From Candidatus Omnitrophota bacterium (GTDB taxonomy: Bacteria; Omnitrophota; JACPQZ01): a stretch of DNA of 34,804 nt. A program made the position numbers and the translations under genes. Location: the NCBI GenBank assembly GCA_016190205.1, contig JACPQZ010000042.1:1-34804 (forward strand), read 5' to 3'. Below, piece by piece: positions 1 to 34,053 of the stretch. The notes beneath the pieces were generated by a model that worked only from the letters and a program-made list of their open reading frames with translations, was not told the origin of the DNA and ran no database searches. Positions within the stretch are counted from its first letter, which is position 1; every line of letters begins with the position of its first letter.

Positions 1-3000
1 CAGCTTGATGAGCTGCGGCAGGGATACGCTTTTGCAGCTCCGATACTTCAGGCCGACCTTCCTCGATTCGAGTGGGCCGGGAAGTTATGGAGGGATAAGT
101 ATAACGAACTTGTGGAACTCGTTCCGCTCCCTGAACTCCCGAAGGCCAAGCCAGGTATCCAGCCGGGGGTTTTAGTGGTTGTCCCTACGGGTGAAATGGC
201 TTACAGCCAGCCGGGTTCAAACCGCCTGGCTGGATGGCATGATGTCCCTTTGACAGACCAAGGCAGGCGCGAGGCGGCCGCGGCAGGGCAACTTCTTATT
301 CTCAATGAACTCAAGCTAGACCGGGCTTTCGCTTCGGATCAATCTCGTTCCATCGAGACGGCAGACATTATCCTTAAAGCAGGGGATTTCGGTGAGGTGC
401 CGGTCACGAAGCAGTCCGAGCTCAAGGGCCGCAATGCGGGACTCATGACAGGCTGGCGAATCCCGGATATGATCGACGTCTTCGGCAGGGAGACTTGTAA
501 GTACTGGAGCTTGGGATATTCGAGCAGTGACGCAAGACCCCCGGGCGGAGAAAATCTCTTAGACAGTCAGGAGAGGATTATCCCGCGTTTTGTGAATGAT
601 GTGATGCGTGAAGTAGTCGAGGGGAAAAATGTGCTGGTGTCACTTGATGATGACGCGATCCGCGCCATTCTGGTCTATCTTCGCAGACAGGAAGTGGACG
701 GGCCGCTTATGGAGGAGGATGTTATGGCACTCGAGATTCCGCGTGTCCCCTTCATCCATATTTCGTTCGAAGCAGGTCCGGATGGCCGCCTGACCAGTAA
801 TGAGATCTTTGTGTCGGGCAAGCAAGAGGTATCAGCAGAACGCGAGACTTCCGGGGATGGCCTTGGCGCTGTCGATGGTGTTTCGGAGCCGTCCATTCCA
901 TTTTTAGAGCGCGCGCCGCAGGATATGAAACTCAACGACCCCGTTCGGACAGTTGTGAGCGCCGATCTTGCGATTGACCTGGATGAAGATACCGGCATCC
1001 GTTCCATTAAGCTTAGCCGCCAGAGCCGGATCCTCGATGCCCTCATCCGGCAGATCGAGGGAAATCCCAACTGGGCTGTCACGGATATCTACGGGGTGGG
1101 CGATGTGGAGGCATTTGCCAGGTTCCTTAAGAACAATAAGGCGCACGGCCGGTTTAAAGGGAATCTTGAATATATGCTGGAACAGCCCATCGCAGGCAGC
1201 GACACCTCTGAGTTCGGTATTCTTCAGATAAACGGAGGTACAAGTATCGGGATCCACCGAAAGACGCTGGCACGTACTCACGGGATTATGCCGCCCGATA
1301 CCCAAAGGTTGATTCACTTCGCAGGGGCTGTTTCTCCGATCGGTTCTTACCCAAAAGATCTCAAGGTCATGTACATCCATCCCAGTCGCACGCCGGAGAA
1401 TGTTCCATTAACGGCCTGGGGCGTGTCCGGAACCCCAAGGGCTCATCATAAACACTTGTTACGCGTCTTACCCATGACCAGTCAAGGCGCTGCCCCGATC
1501 CTCCAAATACTCGGCAAGTATTTTGGAATTACCGCAGTCTCCATTGAAGCGGCCATGCCCTCCAATCAGATGGGTCAGGATCTCGACGTACAGCTCAATC
1601 AGCAGGTAGGCGGGGGACTCTCCCAGTTGCTGCCGGAAGTCTTCGGCCCGGGGAAGGCCCCTGTCATTAGTGGCGCCGGTGTGAGCTTTAGCCCGGTTAA
1701 GGGGGGGACAGAACTTTCTATTAATGTAGTTTTAAACAAACGAGATAGGCCTGTGACGGCGGATGAAGTAAACCAAGCGCTGAAGAAAGCTGTCCAGGAA
1801 GATCCGGCACTTTCTCAATTCATCTATTTTCCCTCTGACGACGAGGAGCCGGTTGCCTCGCACAGCGCAGACCGGCCGCAAGTGATCGTAGATTGGAAAC
1901 ACACAGGAGTAGTGGAGAGGGAATTTCAAGGAGGGCGTTATACACAGGTGAGCCTCAATGTTTGGATCAGCGAGTGGGCTTACGCGAGGGCCATCTGGGA
2001 CTTGGCCATCCGCGAGGAGCTTGCCCGTAACGCGCCGCGAGACCAGGATCCCGCACAGGCTCGGTTTCTCGCCTTTCAGCGCGGGCACGGGGCGGTTCCG
2101 CCGAGGCCGGAGTCTCAATACCGGGCTGTTTATGAACCCGTCCGGGATGCCGCCTTAAGCCTTGGACGGAAGGTGAAGGTGGCGATTCAGGGAGGCGGCG
2201 GGAGATCCGGCAAGCATGCCATTTGGGATCTCATCGGCAATCCTTATGTAGAACTTGTTGCGATCAATGGGGTGGACAACCTCGTTTCGTTGACGGAACA
2301 GCTTAAGCACGATGATGTATACGGGGATATTGATCTTGAGACAAGTTACGGACTTGACGAGAGCACGCGGCGGAACTTCATCATGCTCAATGGCCATAGG
2401 GTTTGGGTGTTTAACATAAGGGATGATATGACGAAACTTCCCTGGCGCGAGCTTGGGGTTGACGTCGTCGAGGAGATTTCAGGTACGCAGACCACGCGGG
2501 AGAAGGCCTATGGCCATATCGACGCGGGTGCCCAGGCCGTTCTCATTAATAACCCTCCGGGAGAAACGCTGGATGCCACCGTCATCCTGGGGGTCAACGA
2601 CGATGTGGGGCTGGACGGTACGGGCAGAATTTTCTCAATCGGATCATGCACGACGAATAATTGCGCGACACTCACGCAGGTGCTCGCACGGCGTTATGGG
2701 TCAGCCGGCATCTTAACAGAAAGTGGCAATACCATTCATGCCGTGACGAATACACAACGCCTCCTCGGCACCACCTCGGTAGAACCCCAGTCGCGGCGCG
2801 ACCGCTCGGGGCCTTATACGGCGCTTCGCACCTCATCGGGCGCCGGCGTACTCACGGCGCAGGTGGTGCCTGGAATGAAGGAAAACATCCAGGTAGCTGC
2901 CCTGCGGGCCGGAAACCCAACCGGTTCTGTGGTACCTCTTTTAATCCACCTGGCACCTGGGATTAAGACGTCCGTTGAGGAAGTAAACTCACTGTTTCAA

Positions 3001-6000
3001 GAGTCGGCTCAAACTGACCTACAGGGCATCCTGGCTGTTGAAGCTGGGGTCATGAGCTCCGGTGACATTTTGGGTAATCGCGCTTCGGCCGTCTTGGACC
3101 CGGAGCTGACGCGTGTCGAGGTGACCGAAGAAGGGACTTTGGTCTATCTGGTGGCTTGGTATGACAATGAGCCCGCACCCTCCGCCCGGATGAATGACAT
3201 GGCGGTTCTTGTGACCGCGAGGAAAGAAGCGTACCGACAGGGCCTGACCCCGCAAGAATCTCGCGCGCGGGAATTGGCCGAATGGTATTTCACCTCGAAT
3301 CAAAAAGAGGGCCTGACCGCACTTCGGCTGGAGCAATTGTGCAGATCGCGCGGAATCAGGATAGAACCTGCGCAGGCATTAAAAGTTTTGAATCGTATGG
3401 CGCATGAACGCCCGCTTGAGTTCCATCGGGAGATCGCAGACGCACAGGATAAGACCCATAACCTCTACAGCTACCGTCCGGTTCAACTCGCCACAGTGGG
3501 GCCCACCACTCCCAAACGCGGCGCGTTTACCGGGAAGGTGAGTATGGAGCATCTTGTAGAGGGCAGGGCAGGGGCCGTCTGGCTCGGCGACGATCCTTTA
3601 AGTGATGACAAAAGAACCGCTCTAGCAGTCAAAACGGCGCGATACTTGGGCCTCTACCCCATCGTTTCCATCAATGAGGCGACGGAGGTGGATCCCGAGC
3701 AGTTGAAGGGTCCAATCGAGCGGGCGCAGAGGAGCATAGCTCGAAGGCAACTCCTGGGGGAGGAGGGGGTCGCACGCCGCAGAAGAATCAGAAGCGATGC
3801 ACAGAGATCTGAACTCGTGGACCATCTCCTGGGCGAGCTCAAGGCACGCCTAAGCCCGACCTACCAGCTTACAAAGGAAGATCTTTTGCGGACCGCCCTT
3901 GCCTTCCGAATCGAGTCGGGAATGGAGGCCCAGGGTGTGCAAGAGGTGTTTAAGCATCTGCGCGCTCAACTGGCGCTGGAATACGGTATGGCGCCGGAGG
4001 AAGCCGCAAAGATTCCTTTCATTTATACTGGAAAACTTGCGGATGAAATTCCAGAAAATCATGTGAAGGCACTGCTCGCTCAAGAAGACGTCGGTGGCGT
4101 TTTCATTCCGGCGGAGCATTTTGAGGTGATCAGAAGACTCGAGGGCAATGAAGGTGACCCCCCCATTCTTCTAGTGGAGGCCCCGGCACAGCTCTCGGAG
4201 CGGGAGATCTTGGACGCCCTCGAGCCTTATCAGAAATCCTTCCGCATCGTCCTGCTCGCACCCTTTGAGCGTCTCTATGCCCTGGATCAGGAGCAAAAGG
4301 GTGCTCCCATTGATTGGGAGGCTCAAAGGCCGGTGGCGGTGTTTAGCCAGGGCATGGGCGAGCATCGCATCCTGGACGAGATTCTGAAACCCCTGGTTGG
4401 TCAACCCCAGCCTTTTGGCTGGAGTGCCAGGTTGAGCCCGGAACTTACCCCCCAGGCGCTCAAGGGAAGGGTCGACGGGGTGCTCGCCGGCCATTCTGAA
4501 ATCCGGAAGGATCTTAAGGATCGTATTGAAGCCCTTATCAACGCCGGCAGGCTGGTTGTGCCCCAGGGTGAGGTGCGGGAAACTTTCGTGCGCAGTCTGG
4601 TCGATCGGGTGATTCGGAAGGCCCTGGAGGAAGCCGTGGGAGTCCGCAGGCCCGGTGCGAAAAATATCCTAGCCATCAACGTGACGAATGAGGAGTACGA
4701 GGCGGGCCTTACGGAGCGGGTGATCGAGGCTCAACTTGTGGGAAATGCCTTCAACGGCGGGTTTGGCGCGCTTCGAAACATTTCACTGGAAGAGATGTTA
4801 GAGACCCTCGTGGTTTTTGAACCGGTATTTGCCATAGGCACGGGCAAGACGCCCACGTCGGACGTTGTGAAAAGTAAACTGGACCATGTGGAGAACGTTC
4901 TGGCGGGCCTCATTGCCGGCAAGTTGAGAATGATGGAAGCTGGAGCGCTGTCTGGGCTCATTCAGACGCATTTGAGCGAAGGTGAACGTGCGGCCCTAGA
5001 AGGCGCGACGGGTGCGGAGAAGATCGAGCGGTTGGCGCGGAGTTTGGCTAAACAGCAGATTTCGAGAGGATACGGCGGGAGCGTGAGCAAGGAAAATGTG
5101 GAGAGGCTCATCGCCGAGGCTGGCGGCGAGGTATGGCTGGTGGGAACCGCCAGCCGCAGTGCCGATGAATTTGCGGCCGTTGTAGACATGTCGGCGAGAA
5201 GGGGTGCCGCGGCAGGTGTGGTACCCTTTGCGATCGCCAACTGGAAGGCCGCAGTAAATAAACACTCTCCCCAGGAGCATGTTGCCACGCTCGCTCCTCT
5301 GATTGAACCTGAGTTTCGTTCGCCTGACGTGCGTGTGGGGCTATCCGTAGCGGCGACACAGATTCCCATCGTTGTGCAGGCGCTAAACGAGGCCACTAGC
5401 GAGAGGGAAGGGATGACGGGAGTGGCAAGTTCTGCAGGGGATGGCTTGGTGGAAGATGCGATTACGATCCCGCTGGAAAAGTTGCAAGTTACATTTGAGC
5501 AGGTGAATGCGACAGGCAGCGGCCGGATGGAACGCGTGTTGCGCCGTCAGCTCGCAAATCACCGTAGCTCTCTACTCGGACAGGTGATTTTGGCGCGTCA
5601 GGCGCGGGACTTGGTTAATATTTCAGCGACTCCTTTTTCCATTGTGGTGAGCGACGCGGCTATAACAGCGCAAGAGGGCTTAAGGGAGTTCGAAATCTTG
5701 CGGACTCTCTTCGGTCCGGAACAGGTCTTTACTGTGAGCGAATATCTTGGCAAGATTCGGCCGGTTTCTCCGAAGACCCTGTTTGTCGTGACGGAAAAAG
5801 AACAAGGTCTCATCGGGCTGGGAGATTTTGATCTCGGCCGGCTGTATCGCACAGAAAATTTTGAAGAGATCCACGTGTTTCGATGCGAGGGCAGTGTCCT
5901 TTCTGCCCTCCGGGGTATCAGTCGGGCCGTTCCTTTCCAGGATCACGTCCAGTTTTTACAAGAACTCATGCAGTCCATCGCCGAAGAAGTGACCCGCCAG

Positions 6001-6009
6001 GCCGCGTAA
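1..6009 (+). CDS. Giant multidomain fusion of PGAM-, GAPDH- and TIM-like modules (5' partial)
   Basis: The frame is open from base 1 with no stop, so the GTG at 112 in the ORF track is not a real start and the N-terminus lies upstream. Numbering from that GTG, the domains are as follows. Residues ~20-230 resemble phosphoglycerate mutase/histidine phosphatase (WHDVPLTDQG, PPGGENLL), but RHG is PTG and the second His is Leu. Residues ~277-633 are GAPDH-like, with Met455 in place of the catalytic Cys. Residues ~684-1050 are GAPDH with SCTTN (Cys846), IHAVTNTQ and WYDNE. Residues ~1120-1340 are a degenerate TIM (GAFTGKVS kept, GHSER lost). Residues ~1345-1695 are a TIM with GHSE (His1461), FEPVFAIGTGKT (Glu1570) and YGGSV but no NWK. 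A third TIM-like start with NWK (Lys1712) follows. Family assignments come from motifs read by eye. Which modules are active is inference. Confidence 0.85.
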   Translation, partial: QLDELRQGYAFAAPILQADLPRFEWAGKLWRDKYNELVELVPLPELPKAKPGIQPGVLVVVPTGEMAYSQPGSNRLAGWHDVPLTDQGRREAAAAGQLLILNELKLDRAFASDQSRSIETADIILKAGDFGEVPVTKQSELKGRNAGLMTGWRIPDMIDVFGRETCKYWSLGYSSSDARPPGGENLLDSQERIIPRFVNDVMREVVEGKNVLVSLDDDAIRAILVYLRRQEVDGPLMEEDVMALEIPRVPFIHISFEAGPDGRLTSNEIFVSGKQEVSAERETSGDGLGAVDGVSEPSIPFLERAPQDMKLNDPVRTVVSADLAIDLDEDTGIRSIKLSRQSRILDALIRQIEGNPNWAVTDIYGVGDVEAFARFLKNNKAHGRFKGNLEYMLEQPIAGSDTSEFGILQINGGTSIGIHRKTLARTHGIMPPDTQRLIHFAGAVSPIGSYPKDLKVMYIHPSRTPENVPLTAWGVSGTPRAHHKHLLRVLPMTSQGAAPILQILGKYFGITAVSIEAAMPSNQMGQDLDVQLNQQVGGGLSQLLPEVFGPGKAPVISGAGVSFSPVKGGTELSINVVLNKRDRPVTADEVNQALKKAVQEDPALSQFIYFPSDDEEPVASHSADRPQVIVDWKHTGVVEREFQGGRYTQVSLNVWISEWAYARAIWDLAIREELARNAPRDQDPAQARFLAFQRGHGAVPPRPESQYRAVYEPVRDAALSLGRKVKVAIQGGGGRSGKHAIWDLIGNPYVELVAINGVDNLVSLTEQLKHDDVYGDIDLETSYGLDESTRRNFIMLNGHRVWVFNIRDDMTKLPWRELGVDVVEEISGTQTTREKAYGHIDAGAQAVLINNPPGETLDATVILGVNDDVGLDGTGRIFSIGSCTTNNCATLTQVLARRYGSAGILTESGNTIHAVTNTQRLLGTTSVEPQSRRDRSGPYTALRTSSGAGVLTAQVVPGMKENIQVAALRAGNPTGSVVPLLIHLAPGIKTSVEEVNSLFQESAQTDLQGILAVEAGVMSSGDILGNRASAVLDPELTRVEVTEEGTLVYLVAWYDNEPAPSARMNDMAVLVTARKEAYRQGLTPQESRARELAEWYFTSNQKEGLTALRLEQLCRSRGIRIEPAQALKVLNRMAHERPLEFHREIADAQDKTHNLYSYRPVQLATVGPTTPKRGAFTGKVSMEHLVEGRAGAVWLGDDPLSDDKRTALAVKTARYLGLYPIVSINEATEVDPEQLKGPIERAQRSIARRQLLGEEGVARRRRIRSDAQRSELVDHLLGELKARLSPTYQLTKEDLLRTALAFRIESGMEAQGVQEVFKHLRAQLALEYGMAPEEAAKIPFIYTGKLADEIPENHVKALLAQEDVGGVFIPAEHFEVIRRLEGNEGDPPILLVEAPAQLSEREILDALEPYQKSFRIVLLAPFERLYALDQEQKGAPIDWEAQRPVAVFSQGMGEHRILDEILKPLVGQPQPFGWSARLSPELTPQALKGRVDGVLAGHSEIRKDLKDRIEALINAGRLVVPQGEVRETFVRSLVDRVIRKALEEAVGVRRPGAKNILAINVTNEEYEAGLTERVIEAQLVGNAFNGGFGALRNISLEEMLETLVVFEPVFAIGTGKTPTSDVVKSKLDHVENVLAGLIAGKLRMMEAGALSGLIQTHLSEGERAALEGATGAEKIERLARSLAKQQISRGYGGSVSKENVERLIAEAGGEVWLVGTASRSADEFAAVVDMSARRGAAAGVVPFAIANWKAAVNKHSPQEHVATLAPLIEPEFRSPDVRVGLSVAATQIPIVVQALNEATSEREGMTGVASSAGDGLVEDAITIPLEKLQVTFEQVNATGSGRMERVLRRQLANHRSSLLGQVILARQARDLVNISATPFSIVVSDAAITAQEGLREFEILRTLFGPEQVFTVSEYLGKIRPVSPKTLFVVTEKEQGLIGLGDFDLGRLYRTENFEEIHVFRCEGSVLSALRGISRAVPFQDHVQFLQELMQSIAEEVTRQAA

Positions 6010-16655: not shown

Positions 16656-18161
16656 ATGACCGAGCTCGTCCGGCTGGCGAGGGATTTTGGCTTTGCAGAT
16701 GAATCCCTGGTGTCGTATGGCCCGGACCGCATCAAGGTTTTTTTTGATCTTACGGCCGCCCCGGCGGGGGACGGCAGGCTCTTTGTCATTGCGGGCATGA
16801 CCCCTCCCCGCGAAGGGGTTGGAAAGTCGAGCGTCGCCCTGGCCTTGACGGATGCCCTCAACCGGCGCGGGACGCGCGCGCTTGCGTCCATGAGGCATCT
16901 CTCATTAGGCGAGGCCGTTGGGAAGGGGCCGGGAAAAGGGTACCTGCCGCGCATAGAGCCTGAAGAGGTCTTTCGCTTCGCGGTAAACCAGGACTCGGGC
17001 CTGGTGGCCTCGTGCCAGAACCTTTTCGCAGCGCTCGCAGATCAGGCGCTAAAGACGGGCGCCTTCGCTCTGGATCCACAGAGGGTTTTCGTGAAGCGCT
17101 GCCACGACCTCTGCGACGACACCCTTCGCCGCGCAGGTTTTGTGCTGGCCGGATCGAGCGAGCTGATGGCCATACTGGCCCTGGTGACGGATCCCGATGA
17201 GGTTGAGTCCCGCGTGGGCCAGATGATCGTGGGGTGCAACACCGCAGGGGGTGCGGTCCGCGTCCGTGACTTTGGCGCCGGGCAGGCGGCCGCGCGTATC
17301 TTAAAGTGCGCGGCGCGTCCCGATCTTATGCGCACGTCGGGCGGTTCGCCCTGTCTGGTGCATACGGCCAGTTTCGCGCATACCTCCCTGGGCTCATCCT
17401 CAATCACCGCCGACCGGATGGCCCTGGCGCACGGGGCCGTCTGCGTGACCGAGACCGGATACGGGTCAGAGCTCGGCCTGGAAAAGTTTTTCGACATCAA
17501 GGTTCGTGCCTGGGGGCGCTTTCCCGAGCGGGTTATCCTGGTGGTCTCGGTGAGCGCCATTCGCGCCCAGGGCGACGGGGAAGAGCTGGATTCAGGAATG
17601 GCCAATCTCGGCGCGCATGTGGAAAACGTAAGGAAATTCGGCTATGAGCCTGTTGTCGTGGTGAACCGCTTTGAATCTGATTCCGCAAAAGATCTGGAGG
17701 CATTGGCCTCCGGGATCCGTGCGTTAGGATTCCTTTCCTTTACTGTCTCCCTCGGTGAGAAGGGGCATCCGGGAATGGACGAACTTGCAGAGGCCCTTTT
17801 TGTAAGAAAAGACGCTTGCTCGTTCACCCTCGGCTATAAACTGGCCGCGCCTCTTCAAGAGAAGGTGGAGTCGGTCGCCCGCACGTTTTTTGGAGCGGAA
17901 GGCGTGGAATTTTCGAATGAGGCTCTTGAGGAGATGGAAAACTTACGTAACGAGGGATATGACCGTTTTCCCGTCATGTTCGTCAAAACGCCCTTTTCCC
18001 TTGGCCATGCATCTTCGCTCAAGGGGCGTCCGAAGGGGTACATGTTACCGGTCAAGGATATTTCGTATTGGGCCGGGGCAGGTGTTGTGCGCGCTGATTG
18101 CGGAGGGGTGCCGCTCATGCCGTCCTTCAAAACGGGCCCGGAAGTGATCAACCTGACATGA
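16656..18161 (+). CDS. fhs: Highly divergent formate-tetrahydrofolate ligase homologue
   Basis: This 501-aa protein aligns throughout with FTHFS (usual length about 557). VIAGMTPPREGVGKSS corresponds to the P-loop, VFVKRCHDLCDDTLR to WKRVxDxNDRxLR, LVHTASFAHTSLGSSS to VHGGPFANIAHGCNS, CVTETGYGSELGLEKFFDIKVR to VTEAGFGADLGAEKFxDIKCR, and PVMFVKTPFSLGHAS to the KTxYSxSD motif. Both classic signatures are degraded: GGAAGGGY reads GKGPGKGY, and the VAT-RALK-HGG motif reads VSVSAIRAQGD. HFTGD reads AVNQD, keeping the Asp. The P-loop Lys and the Arg of R-x-x-SLG remain. Operon position (fchA overlaps its stop as ATGA) argues for expression and a folate role. Retained activity, altered substrate or a structural role are all possible. 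Confidence 0.78.
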   Translation: MTELVRLARDFGFADESLVSYGPDRIKVFFDLTAAPAGDGRLFVIAGMTPPREGVGKSSVALALTDALNRRGTRALASMRHLSLGEAVGKGPGKGYLPRIEPEEVFRFAVNQDSGLVASCQNLFAALADQALKTGAFALDPQRVFVKRCHDLCDDTLRRAGFVLAGSSELMAILALVTDPDEVESRVGQMIVGCNTAGGAVRVRDFGAGQAAARILKCAARPDLMRTSGGSPCLVHTASFAHTSLGSSSITADRMALAHGAVCVTETGYGSELGLEKFFDIKVRAWGRFPERVILVVSVSAIRAQGDGEELDSGMANLGAHVENVRKFGYEPVVVVNRFESDSAKDLEALASGIRALGFLSFTVSLGEKGHPGMDELAEALFVRKDACSFTLGYKLAAPLQEKVESVARTFFGAEGVEFSNEALEEMENLRNEGYDRFPVMFVKTPFSLGHASSLKGRPKGYMLPVKDISYWAGAGVVRADCGGVPLMPSFKTGPEVINLT

Positions 18162-18781
18162 TCGTTGAAAAATCAGTCCAGCGTTTTATAAAGGAGCTTG
18201 CAAGTCCCAGCCCCGTGCCTGGAGGCGGCAACGTCTCCTGTGTAGTGGCGGCACAAGCTGCGGGGCTCGTTTCGATGGCTTGCCTCATTTCGGCGAGGCG
18301 TGAGGAGGCGCTGCGGAAGAGGACGGCCCTCAAGGAGCTTGCGGCGTCGGCGGACGTGCTTATCGATCTGGGATTAAGCCTTGCCGAGCTGGACGCAGAG
18401 GTCTTCACGCGGCTCATCCAGATTTTTAAAACGCGCTTTCGCAGCTCCGCCGAGAGAAGGCGCAGTCTAAGGGAGGCGCTCTCGTTTTGCGCGGCCGCAT
18501 GTCTCGACCTTTTGCTGCTCGCACGTGAGGGGGCCCTTTTGAGCGCGCGAGCCAGCCGGCTCGCCGGGCATGAGATGCTGTCGGAGATCCACACCGCCGT
18601 CTTTTTATGGGATGCTGCGTTTGAAGGCGCCCGGATCAATACCCGCGCGAATCTCGCGTGGCTTAAGGAGCGCGAGGTTGAGCGGCGGGTCCGCGGCTTC
18701 GTTGAGAAGGTATCCGTATCTTACAGGAAACAGAGGGCCATGACGCTCAAGGCATTGCGCGCGCGGGGTGCGCGTATATGA
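18158..18781 (+). CDS. fchA: Methenyl-THF cyclohydrolase FchA (formiminotransferase-cyclodeaminase family)
   Basis: This 207-aa, mostly helical protein begins with FIKELASPSPVPGGGNVSCVVAAQAAGLVSMAC, matching the F-x-x-x-LAS-x-x-PxPGGG signature of the cyclodeaminase/FchA family. In acetogens and purine-fermenting clostridia this stand-alone protein converts 10-formyl-THF and methenyl-THF. I use ATG 18158 (ATGA overlap with fhs) rather than the upstream start in the ORF track, because homology begins there. Its TGA also forms ATGA with folD. The gene matters here because the adjacent FolD has lost its cyclohydrolase residues. Confidence 0.85.
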   Translation: MIVEKSVQRFIKELASPSPVPGGGNVSCVVAAQAAGLVSMACLISARREEALRKRTALKELAASADVLIDLGLSLAELDAEVFTRLIQIFKTRFRSSAERRRSLREALSFCAAACLDLLLLAREGALLSARASRLAGHEMLSEIHTAVFLWDAAFEGARINTRANLAWLKEREVERRVRGFVEKVSVSYRKQRAMTLKALRARGARI

Positions 18782-19662
18782 AGACTGGAAAACTTTTGAC
18801 CGGCAAGGACCTGGCCGTCAAGATGCAGGTGCCATTGGGGCAAGAAGTATGCAGACTCACCAGGCGTTTCGGGCGCCGGCCGACCTTGGCGGTCATCCGG
18901 ATCGGTGGGAGGAACCATGCCCAGGCCGCCTATTTGAGAAGCCAGGAGCGGCTCGCGTCCCTTTTAAATATCGGATACCGGCTCATCACGCTCCCCGCGA
19001 GGACAAATGAGGCCCGGCTCCTCCGGGTGATTCAGCGTCTTAACCGTGATGCCGCGGTGTCGGCCATCCTGGTTCTCATGCCGGTCCCCCGGCACATAGA
19101 CGTCAAGCACATCATGCATCACATCCTGCCCGCCAAAGATGCTGAGGGCCTGCATTCTGAAAACCTGGGCCGGCTTGTTATGGAGCGCGATCACGTGGTC
19201 CCGCCCACGCCGGGGGCGATCATGACGCTTCTAAAAAGCTCCCGCGTCAATCTTGCGGGAAGGGAAGCGGTGGTGGTGGGCCATAGTCAGGTGGTGGGAA
19301 GGCCCCTGGCCCTTATGCTCTTGAGGGAGCTCGCGACCACGACCGTCTGTCACATCGCGACCTCCCGGCGCGGGCACCTCAAGAAACATGTTGAGAAGGC
19401 TGAAGTACTGATCGTTGCGGTGGGCAAGGCGGGTCTTATTCCGGGGCGTTGGATTCGAAGAGGGGCCATCGTAGTGGACGTGGGGCTCAACCGCAAGGGG
19501 GGAAGGCTCGCGGGAGATGTTGACTTTGAAGGCGCGCGGAGGCGCGCGAGCCTCATCACCCCTGTTCCCGGAGGGGTGGGCCCGCTCACGGTGACCATCT
19601 TAATGAAAAATGTCGTGGAGTGCTTTAAGTGGCAGCATGGAGTGGGGAGGCATAGGATATAA
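18778..19662 (+). CDS. folD: FolD-like methylene-THF dehydrogenase lacking cyclohydrolase residues
   Basis: The 294-aa protein has the FolD fold. An N-terminal catalytic half is followed by a Rossmann half with VVVGHSQVVGRPLALML and a C-terminal TPVPGGVGPLTVTILMKN. Three catalytic positions are changed. The YVxxK lysine is Gln (AAYLRSQER), the Gln of VQLPLP is Leu (ILVLMPVP), and the KDVDG aspartate is Glu (AKDAEGLHSENLGRL). In characterised FolD/MTHFD proteins the Lys and Gln are needed for cyclohydrolase activity. The dinucleotide site looks intact, so I infer a dehydrogenase working with FchA, its ATGA-coupled neighbour. Complete loss of activity remains possible. Confidence 0.85.
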   Translation: MKTGKLLTGKDLAVKMQVPLGQEVCRLTRRFGRRPTLAVIRIGGRNHAQAAYLRSQERLASLLNIGYRLITLPARTNEARLLRVIQRLNRDAAVSAILVLMPVPRHIDVKHIMHHILPAKDAEGLHSENLGRLVMERDHVVPPTPGAIMTLLKSSRVNLAGREAVVVGHSQVVGRPLALMLLRELATTTVCHIATSRRGHLKKHVEKAEVLIVAVGKAGLIPGRWIRRGAIVVDVGLNRKGGRLAGDVDFEGARRRASLITPVPGGVGPLTVTILMKNVVECFKWQHGVGRHRI

Positions 19663-19766: not shown

Positions 19767-20636
19767 ATGACTCTTAAAGAGAAACTTAAGCAGGGCAAGT
19801 TCGTTGTCACGGCAGAGCTCAACCCCCCCAAGGGGACTGACCTCACGCAGCTTTATCAAGGCGTGGACCTTTTAAAGGGCAAGGTAGACGCCTGCAATAT
19901 TACGGATGGGACGGGGGCGCTTATGAAGGCCGCGCCTGTCCCCATTGCCTCCCTGGTTAAGGAGCGGGGGATTGAACCTATCCTCCAGCTTACGTGCAGG
20001 GACCGCAACCGCATGGCGCTTCAGTCGGAGCTTTTGGGGGCCTGGTGCTTAGGCGTCCGGAACATGCTGGCCCTGGGCGGGGATCCCATTCAGATCGGGG
20101 ATCACCCGGAGGCCAAGCCGGTGTATGATCTGGACACCCTGGGACTTATCAAGGCGGCCAAGACGCTTTCACAGGGCAAGGATCTGGCGGGGAAGGAGCT
20201 CACCGGCTCGCCTGATTTCTTTGTAGCGGCAGCCGCCAATCCAGGTGCGGATGATCTCGATAGCGAGATGAGTAAGACGAAGGCCAAGATAGACGCCGGC
20301 GCGGATTTTTTCCAGACCCAGGCGGTGTTTGAGCAAGCCGTGTTCGACCGCTGGTGGACGAAGGTCAAGGGGATAGGAAAACCTATGATCCTGGGGGTCA
20401 TCCTCGTGAAGTCTGTCAAGATGGCTCAATATATGAATAAGCACATCCCCGGAGTTCATATTCCCGACCCGCTGATGAAAAAGCTGGACGAAGCCCCTGA
20501 TAAGGCCGAGGCCTGTGTCGAGATCGCCTCGAGCCTCATTCGTATGGTTAAGGGTGCCGTTCAAGGCGTCCACATCATGGCAATCGGCTGGGAAGACAAG
20601 ATCCCCGCGGTGCTTAAAAGGTGCGGCCTTGGATAA
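19767..20636 (+). CDS. metF: Methylene-tetrahydrofolate reductase
   Basis: This 289-aa MTHFR barrel has KFVVTAELNPPKGTD near the N-terminus (the family's catalytic Glu and PP turn), NITDGTGALMKAAPV, the LTCRDRNRMALQSELLGAWCLGVRNMLALGGDP core, and DFFQTQAVFE. It reduces 5,10-methylene-THF to 5-methyl-THF, the last folate step of the Wood-Ljungdahl methyl branch. No separate MetV-type gene with a Fe-S motif adjoins it; MetE/UroD-like methyltransferases follow instead. The ATG is about 15 bp beyond the inverted repeat at 19668-19752. The next gene starts within its last codons. Confidence 0.9.
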   Translation: MTLKEKLKQGKFVVTAELNPPKGTDLTQLYQGVDLLKGKVDACNITDGTGALMKAAPVPIASLVKERGIEPILQLTCRDRNRMALQSELLGAWCLGVRNMLALGGDPIQIGDHPEAKPVYDLDTLGLIKAAKTLSQGKDLAGKELTGSPDFFVAAAANPGADDLDSEMSKTKAKIDAGADFFQTQAVFEQAVFDRWWTKVKGIGKPMILGVILVKSVKMAQYMNKHIPGVHIPDPLMKKLDEAPDKAEACVEIASSLIRMVKGAVQGVHIMAIGWEDKIPAVLKRCGLG

Positions 20637-21555
20637 AAGTCTCCGCCACGGCTTCCGCCCGCGCGGGGCTGTGACAGGCGTGGGCAGTGTGGCGTGGACG
20701 GAGCCCGAGCGCGCCCTCGAGGTAATCCTGCGTTATTGCCCTGAAGTCCCTTACTGGCCGCAGCTTCCCTTAAGGGCCCAGTCGGAGGGTATGATTGAGC
20801 AGGCCTTGAGCGGAGCTGAATTGAGCGCCGAGAGTGCCGCTGGATTTTTCTATTGCATGGAGCGGCTCAAGGCGGGCCCGCCCGCCTTTCGTTATTTCAA
20901 GGGCCAGATCACGGGGCCGTGGACGCTGGCGTTTCAAACAAAGAAAAGTCCGGAGGCCGTGGTGGATAGCGTCCGCGCGAAGGCCCTGCAGCAGGCGCGG
21001 GAAATTAAGAGCCGCTCCTTAGTGCCCATCATCTTTTTGGATGAGCCCTGCTTGGTCCTTTTGGAAAAGCCCGCATTTCAGACCGAGAGAGAGAATCTCG
21101 CTCCACTCCTTAAGCATCTTATCGATGAACTGAAGGAGGAGGGGGCCCTGGTGGGAGTGCACCACTGCGCCGATGGCGCGTGGGACCTCATGCTCGAGTG
21201 CGGGGCTGATATAGTCCATTTTGACGCCTTTCATTTTATGGATTCGTTTCTTGAGTCACTGGAGGCCTTGCGCGGTTTTTTTCAGAATGGGGGGTGTGTC
21301 GCATGGGGGATTGTGCCGACGAGAGGCGAGCTCAGGCGGCTCAAAGCGGCAGAACTAGTTGAACGGATCCAAATGGCATTTCGAAAGCTGGCTGAAGTTG
21401 GCCAGGAACCCCCGGCCATTTTTGAGCGTTCCCTGGTCAGCCCGGCTTGCGGTCTTGCAGGTCTCGCCCAGGCGGACAATGTATGGGTTTTTGAAATCTG
21501 TCAGGCGGTATCGAGGCTCTTAAAGAAGCAGTTTAGTATAAAGGAGAAATTTTGA
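20629..21555 (+). CDS. UroD/MetE-like methyltransferase (methyltransferase 1 of 3)
   Basis: This 308-aa barrel protein resembles the cobalamin-independent methionine synthase C-terminal / UroD superfamily: GVGSVAWTEP, YCPEVPYWPQLP, FKGQITGPWTLAF, FLDEPCLV, GVHHCADGAWDLML and SPACGLAGL. His-x-Cys in VHHC and the Cys in SPACG match positions that bind zinc in MetE, so a thiol-activating metal site looks possible. It probably transfers a methyl group from a folate or corrinoid donor; substrate unknown. The TTG at 20629 is chosen because homology begins there and AAAAGGTG precedes it by about 8 bp. The ORF-track start lies deep within metF. It overlaps metF by 8 bp. Confidence 0.7.
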   Translation: MDKSLRHGFRPRGAVTGVGSVAWTEPERALEVILRYCPEVPYWPQLPLRAQSEGMIEQALSGAELSAESAAGFFYCMERLKAGPPAFRYFKGQITGPWTLAFQTKKSPEAVVDSVRAKALQQAREIKSRSLVPIIFLDEPCLVLLEKPAFQTERENLAPLLKHLIDELKEEGALVGVHHCADGAWDLMLECGADIVHFDAFHFMDSFLESLEALRGFFQNGGCVAWGIVPTRGELRRLKAAELVERIQMAFRKLAEVGQEPPAIFERSLVSPACGLAGLAQADNVWVFEICQAVSRLLKKQFSIKEKF

Positions 21556-22524
21556 ATGAAAACGACCGTAGTGGGAGGGTATCCCAAGATTCTCGAGGAT
21601 CAGCTCCTCCGCAAGACCCTTTGGGAGATTGATCGCGAGGGCGGTAAGGCCAATGGAAAGCTGGAAGAGGCGGTTCAAAAAGTCACGCGCTCCGCGATCC
21701 GCGAACAGGAGGAGGCGGGGCTTGACATTGTTTCCGACGGGGCCATCCGCTGGGAAGATGAAATTACGGCTTCCCTAAGGGGAATGGAAGGCATGGAGTT
21801 TACGGGACTCATCCGTTACTTTGACACGAACGTCCTCTACCGCCAGCCGGTCGTGACGCGTCCCGTAAAGCTCAAAATACCGGCCCTTGCGGCCGATTAC
21901 TCCTTCGCGGTGAAAAACGCGAAGAGGCCGGTAAAGGCTATTATGACAGGGCCCTTCACGATCGCGAAGGCCTCGCGGGATGAATATTACCAAAACGGGG
22001 AAAAGTTTGTTTTGGCCTTCGCGGAGGCCCTTCGGGGGGAGCGCGAGGCCCTCGAGCGGGCCGGGGCCAAAAAGATCCAGATAAATGAGCCATTCCTCTT
22101 AAGCGCCCCAGAAGAGTTTGAGCTTTTCCGCAAGGGGTTCCGGACCCTGGCCGAAGGGGCCAGGGCGGAGCTTGAGCTTTTCTTTTCCTTCGGCGATTTT
22201 TCGAAGGTGTTCCCCAAGATCATGGACGTGTGCGTCTGGCGCGTGGGGTTTGACTTAGGCACGGCGCGAAATCCCGAGCGCATCCTCAAAGACAAGGTCT
22301 GGAAAGGCAGAAAGCTCCTGGCCGGGGTCATAGATGCCCGCAACACGCGCCTTGAGACAAAGGAGGAGCTTCACGGAAGGCTCAAGGCGGCCTTGGCTTG
22401 CGTCGCGTCCCAAGACCTCGAGGTCGCGCCCAGCGCAAACCTGGAATTTCTGCCCCTCGACCGCTGCCGCGCGAAACTGAAGAACTTGGTAAAACTGACT
22501 CGTGATTTTAAGGAGGTTGTTTAA
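21556..22524 (+). CDS. MetE-core paralogue without zinc ligands (methyltransferase 2 of 3)
   Basis: This 322-aa protein is clearly homologous to the next gene and to the MetE catalytic barrel (VGGYPKI, ELEEAV-type helices, IMTGPFTIAKAS, KIQINEPFLL, AGVIDARNTRLETKEEL). The metal ligands are gone. The expected H-x-C region reads LFFSFGD (Phe and Ser), the Glu position reads FDLG, and the PDCGLKTR Cys region reads APSANLEFL. It follows the previous gene directly, and the third paralogue starts at the next base after its stop. I infer a non-catalytic or redesigned subunit, perhaps a partner of the intact paralogue. A distinct zinc-free methyltransferase is the alternative. Confidence 0.75.
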   Translation: MKTTVVGGYPKILEDQLLRKTLWEIDREGGKANGKLEEAVQKVTRSAIREQEEAGLDIVSDGAIRWEDEITASLRGMEGMEFTGLIRYFDTNVLYRQPVVTRPVKLKIPALAADYSFAVKNAKRPVKAIMTGPFTIAKASRDEYYQNGEKFVLAFAEALRGEREALERAGAKKIQINEPFLLSAPEEFELFRKGFRTLAEGARAELELFFSFGDFSKVFPKIMDVCVWRVGFDLGTARNPERILKDKVWKGRKLLAGVIDARNTRLETKEELHGRLKAALACVASQDLEVAPSANLEFLPLDRCRAKLKNLVKLTRDFKEVV

Positions 22525-23526
22525 ATGAGGCCCGTTTCAGAATGTCTTCCCACCACTTCGGTCGGAAGTTTCCCCAAGCCGGAGGAACTTAAAACGGCGC
22601 GCACGCGCTTCACGCGCGGCCAGATTAAAAAAGACGAACTCACGCGGCTCGAGAAAAAGGCCACCGAGTTCTGGATCCGCAAGCAGGAGGAGCTCGATAT
22701 TGACCTTGTGGTCGATGGCGAGATGTACCGCGGCGACATGGCGACTTACTTCGCTGAAAACGTGGGCGGGTGTGAAATATCCGGCCTCGTCCGCTCTTAC
22801 GGCAACCGCTACTACAAAAAGCCCATAGTTACGGGTCCCCTTAAGTTTAAGGGGGCGATCACGGTGGAGTGGTTTAAGTTCGCTCAAGGGTTGACCGACC
22901 GGCCCGTCATCGGGATGTTTACCGGGCCCTACACCATGATGGACTGGTCGTTTATCGAGTATTACAAGACGCGGGAGGAAGCGGCCATGGCCTGGGCTGA
23001 AGTGTTGCACGAAGAGGCCGCGGCGCTCGAGCGGGCCGGGGCCCAGTACATCCAGATTGATGAGCCGGCCGTGAGCGTGCGGCCCGAAGAGATGGACCTC
23101 GCCGTCCGCGCCATGGAGGTGGTGGTGGAAGGCCTCAAGGCCAAGACCATCACGCACATCTGTTACGGGGCTTTTGAAAAGATCTACCCAAAGGTCCTCG
23201 AAATCCCGGTGGACCGGATTGACCTCGAGATGTCCAACTCGGGCCTGGATCTTTTGGAGCACATGAAGAGAAATCCGTTCACGAAGGAGCTCGGCCTCGG
23301 CGTGGTAGACGTCCATTCCCACAAGCTGGAGTCCAAGGATGAGGTCAAGAAACGCATCCGTGATGTGATGAAGTATGTCCCGGCGGAGCGCCTCTGGGTG
23401 GATCCGGATTGCGGATTAAAGACGCGCACGGTGGACGAGGCAATTGAAAAGATGCGTGTAGTGTCGGAGGCAGCGAGAGAGGTCCGCAAGGAGCTCAAGG
23501 TAAAAGGAAAGGTATGCCGAAGCTAG
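22525..23526 (+). CDS. Core methionine synthase (MetE C-terminal domain type; methyltransferase 3 of 3)
   Basis: This 333-aa protein contains only the catalytic barrel of cobalamin-independent methionine synthase. TTSVGSFPKP opens it, FTGPYTMMDWSF and YIQIDEPAV follow, and a full zinc site is visible: THICYG (H-x-C), DLEMSNSG (Glu) and VDPDCGLKTR (Cys). Core-MetE proteins lacking the N-terminal folate domain are known in archaea and some anaerobic bacteria and take methyl groups from corrinoid donors rather than from methyl-THF triglutamate. That fits a Wood-Ljungdahl context, but the donor is not shown by the sequence. The end overlaps panB by 13 bp. Confidence 0.85.
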   Translation: MRPVSECLPTTSVGSFPKPEELKTARTRFTRGQIKKDELTRLEKKATEFWIRKQEELDIDLVVDGEMYRGDMATYFAENVGGCEISGLVRSYGNRYYKKPIVTGPLKFKGAITVEWFKFAQGLTDRPVIGMFTGPYTMMDWSFIEYYKTREEAAMAWAEVLHEEAAALERAGAQYIQIDEPAVSVRPEEMDLAVRAMEVVVEGLKAKTITHICYGAFEKIYPKVLEIPVDRIDLEMSNSGLDLLEHMKRNPFTKELGLGVVDVHSHKLESKDEVKKRIRDVMKYVPAERLWVDPDCGLKTRTVDEAIEKMRVVSEAAREVRKELKVKGKVCRS

Positions 23527-33613: not shown

Positions 33614-34040
33614 GTGAGTGATGTGTGGTGAGGTTGGGAGACGAGGGCTTAATGAAAGTTAAAAGCTATAAAGAATTAGAAGTTTGGAAAAAGGGAATAG
33701 AAATAGTGAACATGGTTTACGCGATAGCGAATAGCTTCCCGGACGGTGAGAAGTACGTCCTAGCCGCACAGATGCAGCGAAGCGCTCTGTCGATCCCCTC
33801 CAATATTGCTGAAGGATTTGTTCGTCAATATACTAAAGAGTACAAGCAGTTCCTATACATCGCGCGGGGGTCTTGCGCGGAACTTGAAACTCAAAGGATC
33901 GTTGCCATGCGGCGCAGTTTTGCACCACATGCTGATCTTGAGGAGTTAGGATCACATCTGGAGCACGAAAGCCGTATGCTGATGCGTCTTATTCAGAGGT
34001 TAAATGACCGCGCACTCATCACTCATCACACAGCACTCAC
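33614..34040 (+). mobile_element. IVS-like element: four-helix-bundle gene between heptameric inverted repeats
   Basis: The left arm GTGAGTGATGTGTGGTGAG (33614-33632) and right arm CTCATCACACAGCACTCAC (34022-34040) are complementary at 17 of 19 positions. Both arms are made of related heptamers (right side CACTCAT, CACTCAT, CACACAG, CACTCAC, GACTGAC). They enclose a gene related to the protein carried by 23S rRNA intervening sequences. It interrupts the hemD-hemB series. Mobility is inferred. Confidence 0.6.
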
Positions 34041-34053
34041 GACTGACGCGTAA
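33652..34053 (+). CDS. Four-helix-bundle protein, 23S rRNA intervening-sequence family
   Basis: This 133-aa protein has the IVP family pattern: SYKELEVWKKGIEIVNMVYAI, SFPDGEKYVLAAQMQRSALSIPSNIAEGFVRQ, KEYKQFLYIARGSCAELETQ, and a final helix LEHESRMLMRLIQRLND. The family is found in IVS elements inserted in 23S rRNA genes and as free-standing genes. Its function is unknown, though RNA binding is often suspected. ATG 33652 (GAGGG upstream) is preferred to the GTG at 33625. The last residues, THHTALTTDA, are encoded by the right-hand repeat itself. Confidence 0.88.
   Translation: MKVKSYKELEVWKKGIEIVNMVYAIANSFPDGEKYVLAAQMQRSALSIPSNIAEGFVRQYTKEYKQFLYIARGSCAELETQRIVAMRRSFAPHADLEELGSHLEHESRMLMRLIQRLNDRALITHHTALTTDA

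What the first reader, a model, noticed from the sequence alone, without database searches (positions are those of the whole stretch)
16656..18161. Formate-THF ligase homologue with both signature motifs eroded
The protein aligns end to end with FTHFS but is ~55 residues short. GGAAGGGY, HFTGD and the VAT-RALK-HGG motif are degraded, while the P-loop Lys, the Arg before SLG and the Asp of HFTGD remain. Sitting as the first gene of fhs-fchA-folD with ATGA coupling, it is evidently kept. It may be a changed-specificity ligase or a regulatory partner of a canonical Fhs.
Basis: partly seen in the sequence, partly recalled or inferred. Interest (0 to 1): 0.7.

Follow-up and report, generated by a model that had tools for sequence, protein, structure and literature searches.

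The report
Sole formate-folate ligase, rebuilt active-site loop
This uncultured bacterium's only enzyme for attaching formate to folate keeps its ATP- and formate-binding residues, but the loop that closes over the active site has been rebuilt as in none of 55 relatives compared, so whether it still does the usual reaction needs a bench test.

Summary
Window 16656-18161 encodes a 501-aa homologue of formate--tetrahydrofolate ligase (Fhs; Pfam 360 bits). It fails the NCBIfam equivalog cut-off (330 of 652 bits) and differs at 45 of 132 near-invariant FTHFS columns; 51 phylum relatives differ at 13 or fewer. Signature 1 is exceptional (4 of 11 positions; relatives 7-11). Signature 2 is not: five relatives are equally poor. 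P-loop Lys, Arg97, Asp132 and Phe384 equivalents remain. The gene is intact, coding-like, and sits in an fhs-fchA-folD(-metF) block conserved across its phylum, so it is the vertical orthologue. It is the only FTHFS found in a 93%-complete genome, which argues against 'partner of a canonical Fhs'. Its branch is over three times the next longest; neighbour FchA is also fast, FolD and MetF are normal. The genome shows no AcsB, pyruvate formate-lyase or clear formate dehydrogenase, so constraint on formate activation probably relaxed. Best reading: a drifted or retuned ATP-dependent formyl ligase, probably still acting on folate (0.5); a non-catalytic partner is the main rival. By-product: FolD beside FchA lacks the catalytic lysine (K54Q) in nearly every phylum copy read, implying a split dehydrogenase/cyclohydrolase pair.

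The parts
16656..18161 (+). Divergent Fhs (formate--tetrahydrofolate ligase homologue), 501 aa
   Evidence: PF01268 360.4 bits; PRK13505 329.7 bits vs cut-off 652; only FTHFS found in the genome
16806..16832 (+). P-loop PREGVGKSS, residues 51-59 (K57 = Moorella K74, S58 = T75): ATP site kept
   Evidence: alignment
16893..16994 (+). Rebuilt segment, residues 80-113 (R80 = R97 kept, H81 at E98, KGPGKGY in place of KGGAAGGGY, FAVNQD in place of HFTGD with D113 kept); 13 of 21 near-invariant positions changed in Moorella 97-139
18158..18781 (+). FchA (methenyl-folate cyclohydrolase family), divergent; D143E and S25N at near-invariant positions
   Evidence: PF04961 98.1 bits; NF045657 58 vs cut-off 275
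18778..19662 (+). FolD, only copy found in the genome; catalytic K54->Q, Q98->L, D121->E (K->Q and D->E are shared by nearly all phylum copies read)
19767..20636 (+). MetF (methylene-folate reductase), normal divergence
   Evidence: PF02219 152.1 bits
21556..23526 (+). Two MetE-like methionine synthase catalytic-domain genes in tandem
   Evidence: PF01717 97.6 and 284.5 bits

Best explanation
This is the vertically inherited Fhs of its lineage, not a paralogue. After the lineage lost, or never had, acetyl-CoA synthase and the main formate-producing enzymes, selection on formate activation relaxed or changed. The active-site loop (Moorella 97-132 region) and the likely monovalent-cation site were rebuilt while the ATP P-loop, the formyl-phosphate arginine and the aromatic Phe384 were kept. 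It most likely still binds ATP and forms formyl phosphate, and passes the formyl group to tetrahydrofolate at low or altered efficiency, or runs in reverse. SHMT, FolD and FchA can also supply 10-formyl-folate to PurN, PurH and Fmt, so Fhs is not the only route. Shown: orthology, single detected copy, accelerated divergence, retained and lost residues, gene context. Inferred: relaxed constraint as the cause, and residual ligase activity.
For: Same operon slot in all 18 relatives examined, with fchA next and folD/metF following in nearly all. Only FTHFS found in the genome. The Fhs branch is 1.82 against 0.55 for the next longest (z 6.8); FchA 1.82 against 1.20; FolD 0.72, unremarkable; MetF 0.56, unremarkable. 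So the lineage is not fast-evolving overall. Neighbours PurH, MnmE, FolC and PanB pass curated cut-offs. Codon usage matches the neighbours. K74, R97, D132, H271, F275, A276 and F384 equivalents are kept after a very long branch; an M-CSA-based table lists Lys, Arg, Ala, Trp, Thr and Phe as FTHFS catalytic residue types (PMC13156950). AcsB and PFL were not found; the only molybdopterin oxidoreductase found is PhsA-like. Consumers PurN and Fmt-like, PurH and SHMT are present. AcsB-negative phylum members have slightly more divergent Fhs (p 0.01, not corrected for relatedness).
Against: Invariant or near-invariant positions around the active site are lost: G113K, G115Y, N277H, F304Y, T75S, H128A, E/Q98H, and the 179-193 loop. 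Such loss is also what a dead enzyme would show. There are no activity data and no usable structure model (mean pLDDT 48.6). 71 of 165 Fhs-bearing genomes in the phylum sample lack a detected AcsB, and none of the 24 of these compared (other than this one) is nearly as divergent, so losing AcsB cannot be the whole cause.
Confidence: 0.5

Rival explanations
1. Pseudo-ligase: catalytically dead Fhs kept as a folding or assembly partner or regulator of the FchA/FolD pair, or as an ATP-dependent sensor.
For: Loss of invariant loop glycines and of the 179-193 loop. FchA is co-accelerated, as expected if the two proteins co-adapt. No canonical Fhs partner is needed in this version.
Against: P-loop K57, R80, D113 and F339 are all kept. 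219 of the 384 phylum genomes sampled have no detected Fhs, and FchA-FolD pairs occur in loci without fhs, so no general need for an Fhs scaffold is evident.
Confidence: 0.23
2. Changed acceptor or acid: an ATP-dependent ligase that formylates something other than tetrahydrofolate, or activates another small acid.
For: Changes concentrate in the loop around the acceptor and cation (13 of 21 conserved positions against 35 of 111 elsewhere, p 0.012) while ATP/formate residues stay.
Against: FolD and MetF in the same block are normal, and PurH, PurN, Fmt-like and FolC are present, so folate is the carrier here. No gene in the block suggests another acceptor.
Confidence: 0.12
3. Early decay: the gene is no longer selected but has not yet been broken.
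For: Very long branch, no evident formate source, and fhs absent from many phylum members.
Against: Intact 501 codons with genome-typical codon use, tight ATGA coupling, and most near-invariant positions kept (84 of 132). A neutral gene would not be expected to hold these over 1.8 substitutions per site.
Confidence: 0.1
4. A canonical Fhs exists in the missing ~7% of the genome and this copy is its regulatory paralogue.
For: The assembly is incomplete (92.8%). Two or more Fhs matches occur in a few phylum genomes (for example G214, G185, G367).
Against: This copy occupies the conserved orthologous slot fhs-fchA-folD-metF; a paralogue would more likely sit elsewhere.
Confidence: 0.05

Closest known systems
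Formate--tetrahydrofolate ligase / FTHFS (Fhs; PF01268; solved 1FP7/4IOJ and 3DO6)
   Same: End-to-end homology, P-loop, Arg97, Asp132, His271 and Phe384 equivalents, operon slot
   Different: 501 aa; signature 1 loop rebuilt, E/Q98->H, G113K, G115Y, H128A, N277H, loop 179-193 missing; fails the NCBIfam equivalog cut-off
Canonical Fhs of the same (unnamed) phylum in fhs-fchA-folD-metF blocks
   Same: Synteny and orthology
   Different: Those share about 55% identity with each other and have 13 or fewer deviations at 132 conserved positions; this one is 34% identical to them with 45 (48 with gaps)
FchA (FTCD_C family) methenyl-THF cyclohydrolase, solved 7VG4
   Same: Family and pairing with FolD
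   Different: Window FchA has D143E and S25N; 58 bits against a cut-off of 275

Membership tests
FTHFS (PF01268) | Pfam gathering score | tested here: met
   360.4 vs 27 bits
Fhs equivalog (NCBIfam PRK13505/13506/13507) | curated equivalog cut-off | tested here: not met
   329.7 vs 652; 294.9 vs 800; 251.9 vs 938
FTHFS | P-loop Lys74 and Arg97 (ATP, formyl phosphate) | tested here: met
   K57, R80
FTHFS | Signature 1 glycine-rich loop GxKGGAAGGGY (pattern recalled from memory) | tested here: not met
   4 of 11 positions; 55 other FTHFS 7-11
FTHFS | Signature 2 VATxRALKxHGG (pattern recalled from memory) | tested here: inconclusive
   6 of 12, but five relatives also score 6
FTHFS | Monovalent-cation residues E(Q)98 and D132 | tested here: inconclusive
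   D132 kept, E98 is His; relatives have only Q or E. The cation role is recalled, not tested
FTHFS | Formate-THF ligase activity, K+-dependent tetramer | not testable with these tools
   needs expressed protein
Bifunctional FolD | Catalytic Lys54, Gln98, Asp121 (E. coli numbering) | tested here: not met
   Q, L, E in the window; K->Q and D->E in nearly all copies read in this phylum
FchA cyclohydrolase | curated NCBIfam cut-off | tested here: not met
   58 vs 275; PF04961 98.1 vs 24.5 is met

The most novel reading that the evidence does not exclude
An FTHFS that has been converted, in place in its ancestral operon, into an ATP-dependent enzyme or sensor with a new acceptor or cation requirement, co-adapted with its neighbour FchA.
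Probability: 0.15. Interest if true: 0.65.

Novelty: new variant of a known kind. Interest (0 to 1): 0.38.

Why it matters
FTHFS is a highly conserved enzyme of one-carbon metabolism and a standard marker gene for acetogens. A single-copy orthologue with a rebuilt active-site loop tests which residues are truly needed, and warns that an fhs hit alone does not show formate activation. The FolD/FchA by-product suggests that, in this phylum, the two activities normally housed in one FolD active site may be divided between two neighbouring genes.

Tried and rejected
Carrier swap (all folate enzymes retuned to another pterin): rejected because FolD and MetF evolve normally and folate-dependent PurH, MnmE and FolC are canonical by score. 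FolD triad loss as a peculiarity of this genome: rejected, K->Q and D->E are phylum-wide. Acetyl-CoA synthase loss as a sufficient cause: rejected, because many AcsB-negative genomes keep near-canonical Fhs. Structure prediction: only 3 sequences were admissible, mean pLDDT 48.6, so no fold search was run. A scan of 84,980 genomes with exact peptide patterns found no close homologue, only relatives at 30-32% identity. Literature searches found no described degenerate Fhs of this kind; coverage is limited to open-licence papers. The K108 'deletion' is alignment-dependent (K90 could fill it).

Full report
What is there. The ORF at 16656-18161 (501 aa) is a full-length FTHFS homologue: PF01268 at 360.4 bits over residues 2-499; all solved relatives matched are FTHFS, best 3DO6 (I use Moorella numbering for the 4IOJ/1FP7 sequence, organism names recalled). 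It falls far short of the curated cut-offs for formate--THF ligase (329.7 of 652 bits). Under the same library the window's PurH, MnmE, FolC, PanB, HemA, HemC and HemB pass a curated cut-off of their family, so the shortfall is not a property of the genome.

How unusual. On a MAFFT alignment with 53 loci plus the Moorella and Thermotoga sequences, 132 columns are at least 90% identical among the others. P0001 departs at 48 including gaps (45 without). Among 51 phylum relatives the most divergent departs at 13; with columns redefined to include P0001 it is 38 of 124 against at most 12 in all 55 others. In the Moorella 97-139 segment 13 of 21 conserved positions are changed, 10 of them radically, against 35 of 111 elsewhere (Fisher p 0.012). 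Signature 1 is the exceptional loss (4 of 11 against 7-11); signature 2 is poor in several relatives as well. The 15-residue loop 179-193 is missing.

What is kept. K74, R97, S100, D132, H271, F275, A276, E301, K312 and F384 equivalents are all present. A published M-CSA-based table lists Lys, Arg, Ala, Trp, Thr and Phe as the catalytic residue types of this enzyme (PMC13156950). Trp412 is Gly here, but it is W, Y, F, V, H or R in relatives, and Pro385 and Leu408 vary widely, so these folate contacts (named in PMC11559097) are weak evidence. E98 is Q or E in all relatives and His here. Around the glycine loop the alignment is not unique: K90 may stand for K108.

Orthologue, not paralogue. In 18 phylum relatives the order is fhs-fchA-folD(-metV)-metF or a local variant with metF and folD swapped (one lacks a detected metF), and panB follows in several, as in the window (metV identified by eye). 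It is the only FTHFS found in G000. No other genome of its class is held, so there is no close relative for dN/dS.

Specific acceleration. With 37 genomes carrying all three genes, the Fhs terminal branch is 1.82 (next 0.55), FchA 1.82 (next 1.20) and FolD 0.72 (not the longest). With MetF added on 18 genomes: Fhs 1.75 (next 0.65), FchA 1.68 (next 1.42), FolD 0.60, MetF 0.56. The acceleration is strong in Fhs, moderate in FchA and absent in FolD and MetF. The trees place the window lineage with little or no support, so branch lengths, not topology, carry the argument.

Metabolic setting. AcsB was not found (146 of 384 phylum genomes have it). PFL was not found. The one molybdopterin oxidoreductase found is PhsA-like (392.6 bits, itself below its cut-off of 694) rather than FDH (231 of 666). 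SHMT, PurN, an Fmt-like protein (183.9 of 201.5 bits on a partial stretch) and PurH are present. So the cell needs 10-formyl-folate. It can come from FolD plus FchA or from Fhs; formate is probably a minor metabolite unless taken up. The genome is 92.8% complete, so every absence carries some risk.

FolD by-product. The genome's only detected FolD lacks E. coli K54 and D121 (Q and E). The same K->Q holds in nearly all copies read and in all 45 further copies, where D->E is also universal and fchA lies close by in every locus, with or without fhs. The simplest reading is that FolD is a dehydrogenase only and FchA supplies the cyclohydrolase. One paper argues from kinetic data that the human lysine matters for binding more than for hydride transfer (PMC9173628).

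Verdict. An ordinary family, an ordinary operon, and an extraordinary degree of local divergence in one enzyme and, to a lesser degree, its neighbour. I favour a still-catalytic, drifted or retuned ligase (0.5). Death with retention as a partner (0.23), a new acceptor (0.12), early decay (0.1) and a hidden second Fhs (0.05) remain. The phylum is not named by the tools; genome sizes and the mix of acetogenic and non-acetogenic members resemble what is published for Omnitrophota (PMC10066038), but this was not tested.

Noticed in passing
window 18778-19662 and FolD loci L005-L056, L061-L089, L109-L124: FolD in this phylum has the catalytic lysine replaced by Gln (one apparent exception, L030) and the Asp by Glu, with fchA adjacent even where fhs is absent: a probable phylum-wide split of dehydrogenase and cyclohydrolase.
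   Followed up: partly
window 1-6009: A 2002-aa open frame (5' end outside the window) joins a histidine phosphatase domain, GAPDH N- and C-terminal domains and a triosephosphate isomerase domain, with long unassigned stretches between: a glycolytic mega-fusion.
   Followed up: partly
window 20602-23526: Three consecutive genes after metF: a weakly UROD-like protein and two tandem MetE-catalytic-domain proteins; possibly a core methionine synthase with a degenerate partner.
   Followed up: no
window 33664-34050: A 23S rRNA intervening-sequence (IVP) family protein gene sits inside the haem biosynthesis gene run.
   Followed up: no
L027 (G060) and L036 (G278): Shorter Fhs (539-542 aa) missing part of the same loops (around 179-193 and 338-360) in AcsB-negative genomes; possible intermediate forms.
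   Followed up: no
L100 (G072) and L101 (G214): In these genomes a gene related to the window's UROD-like protein lies directly before fhs, and metF comes before folD.
   Followed up: no
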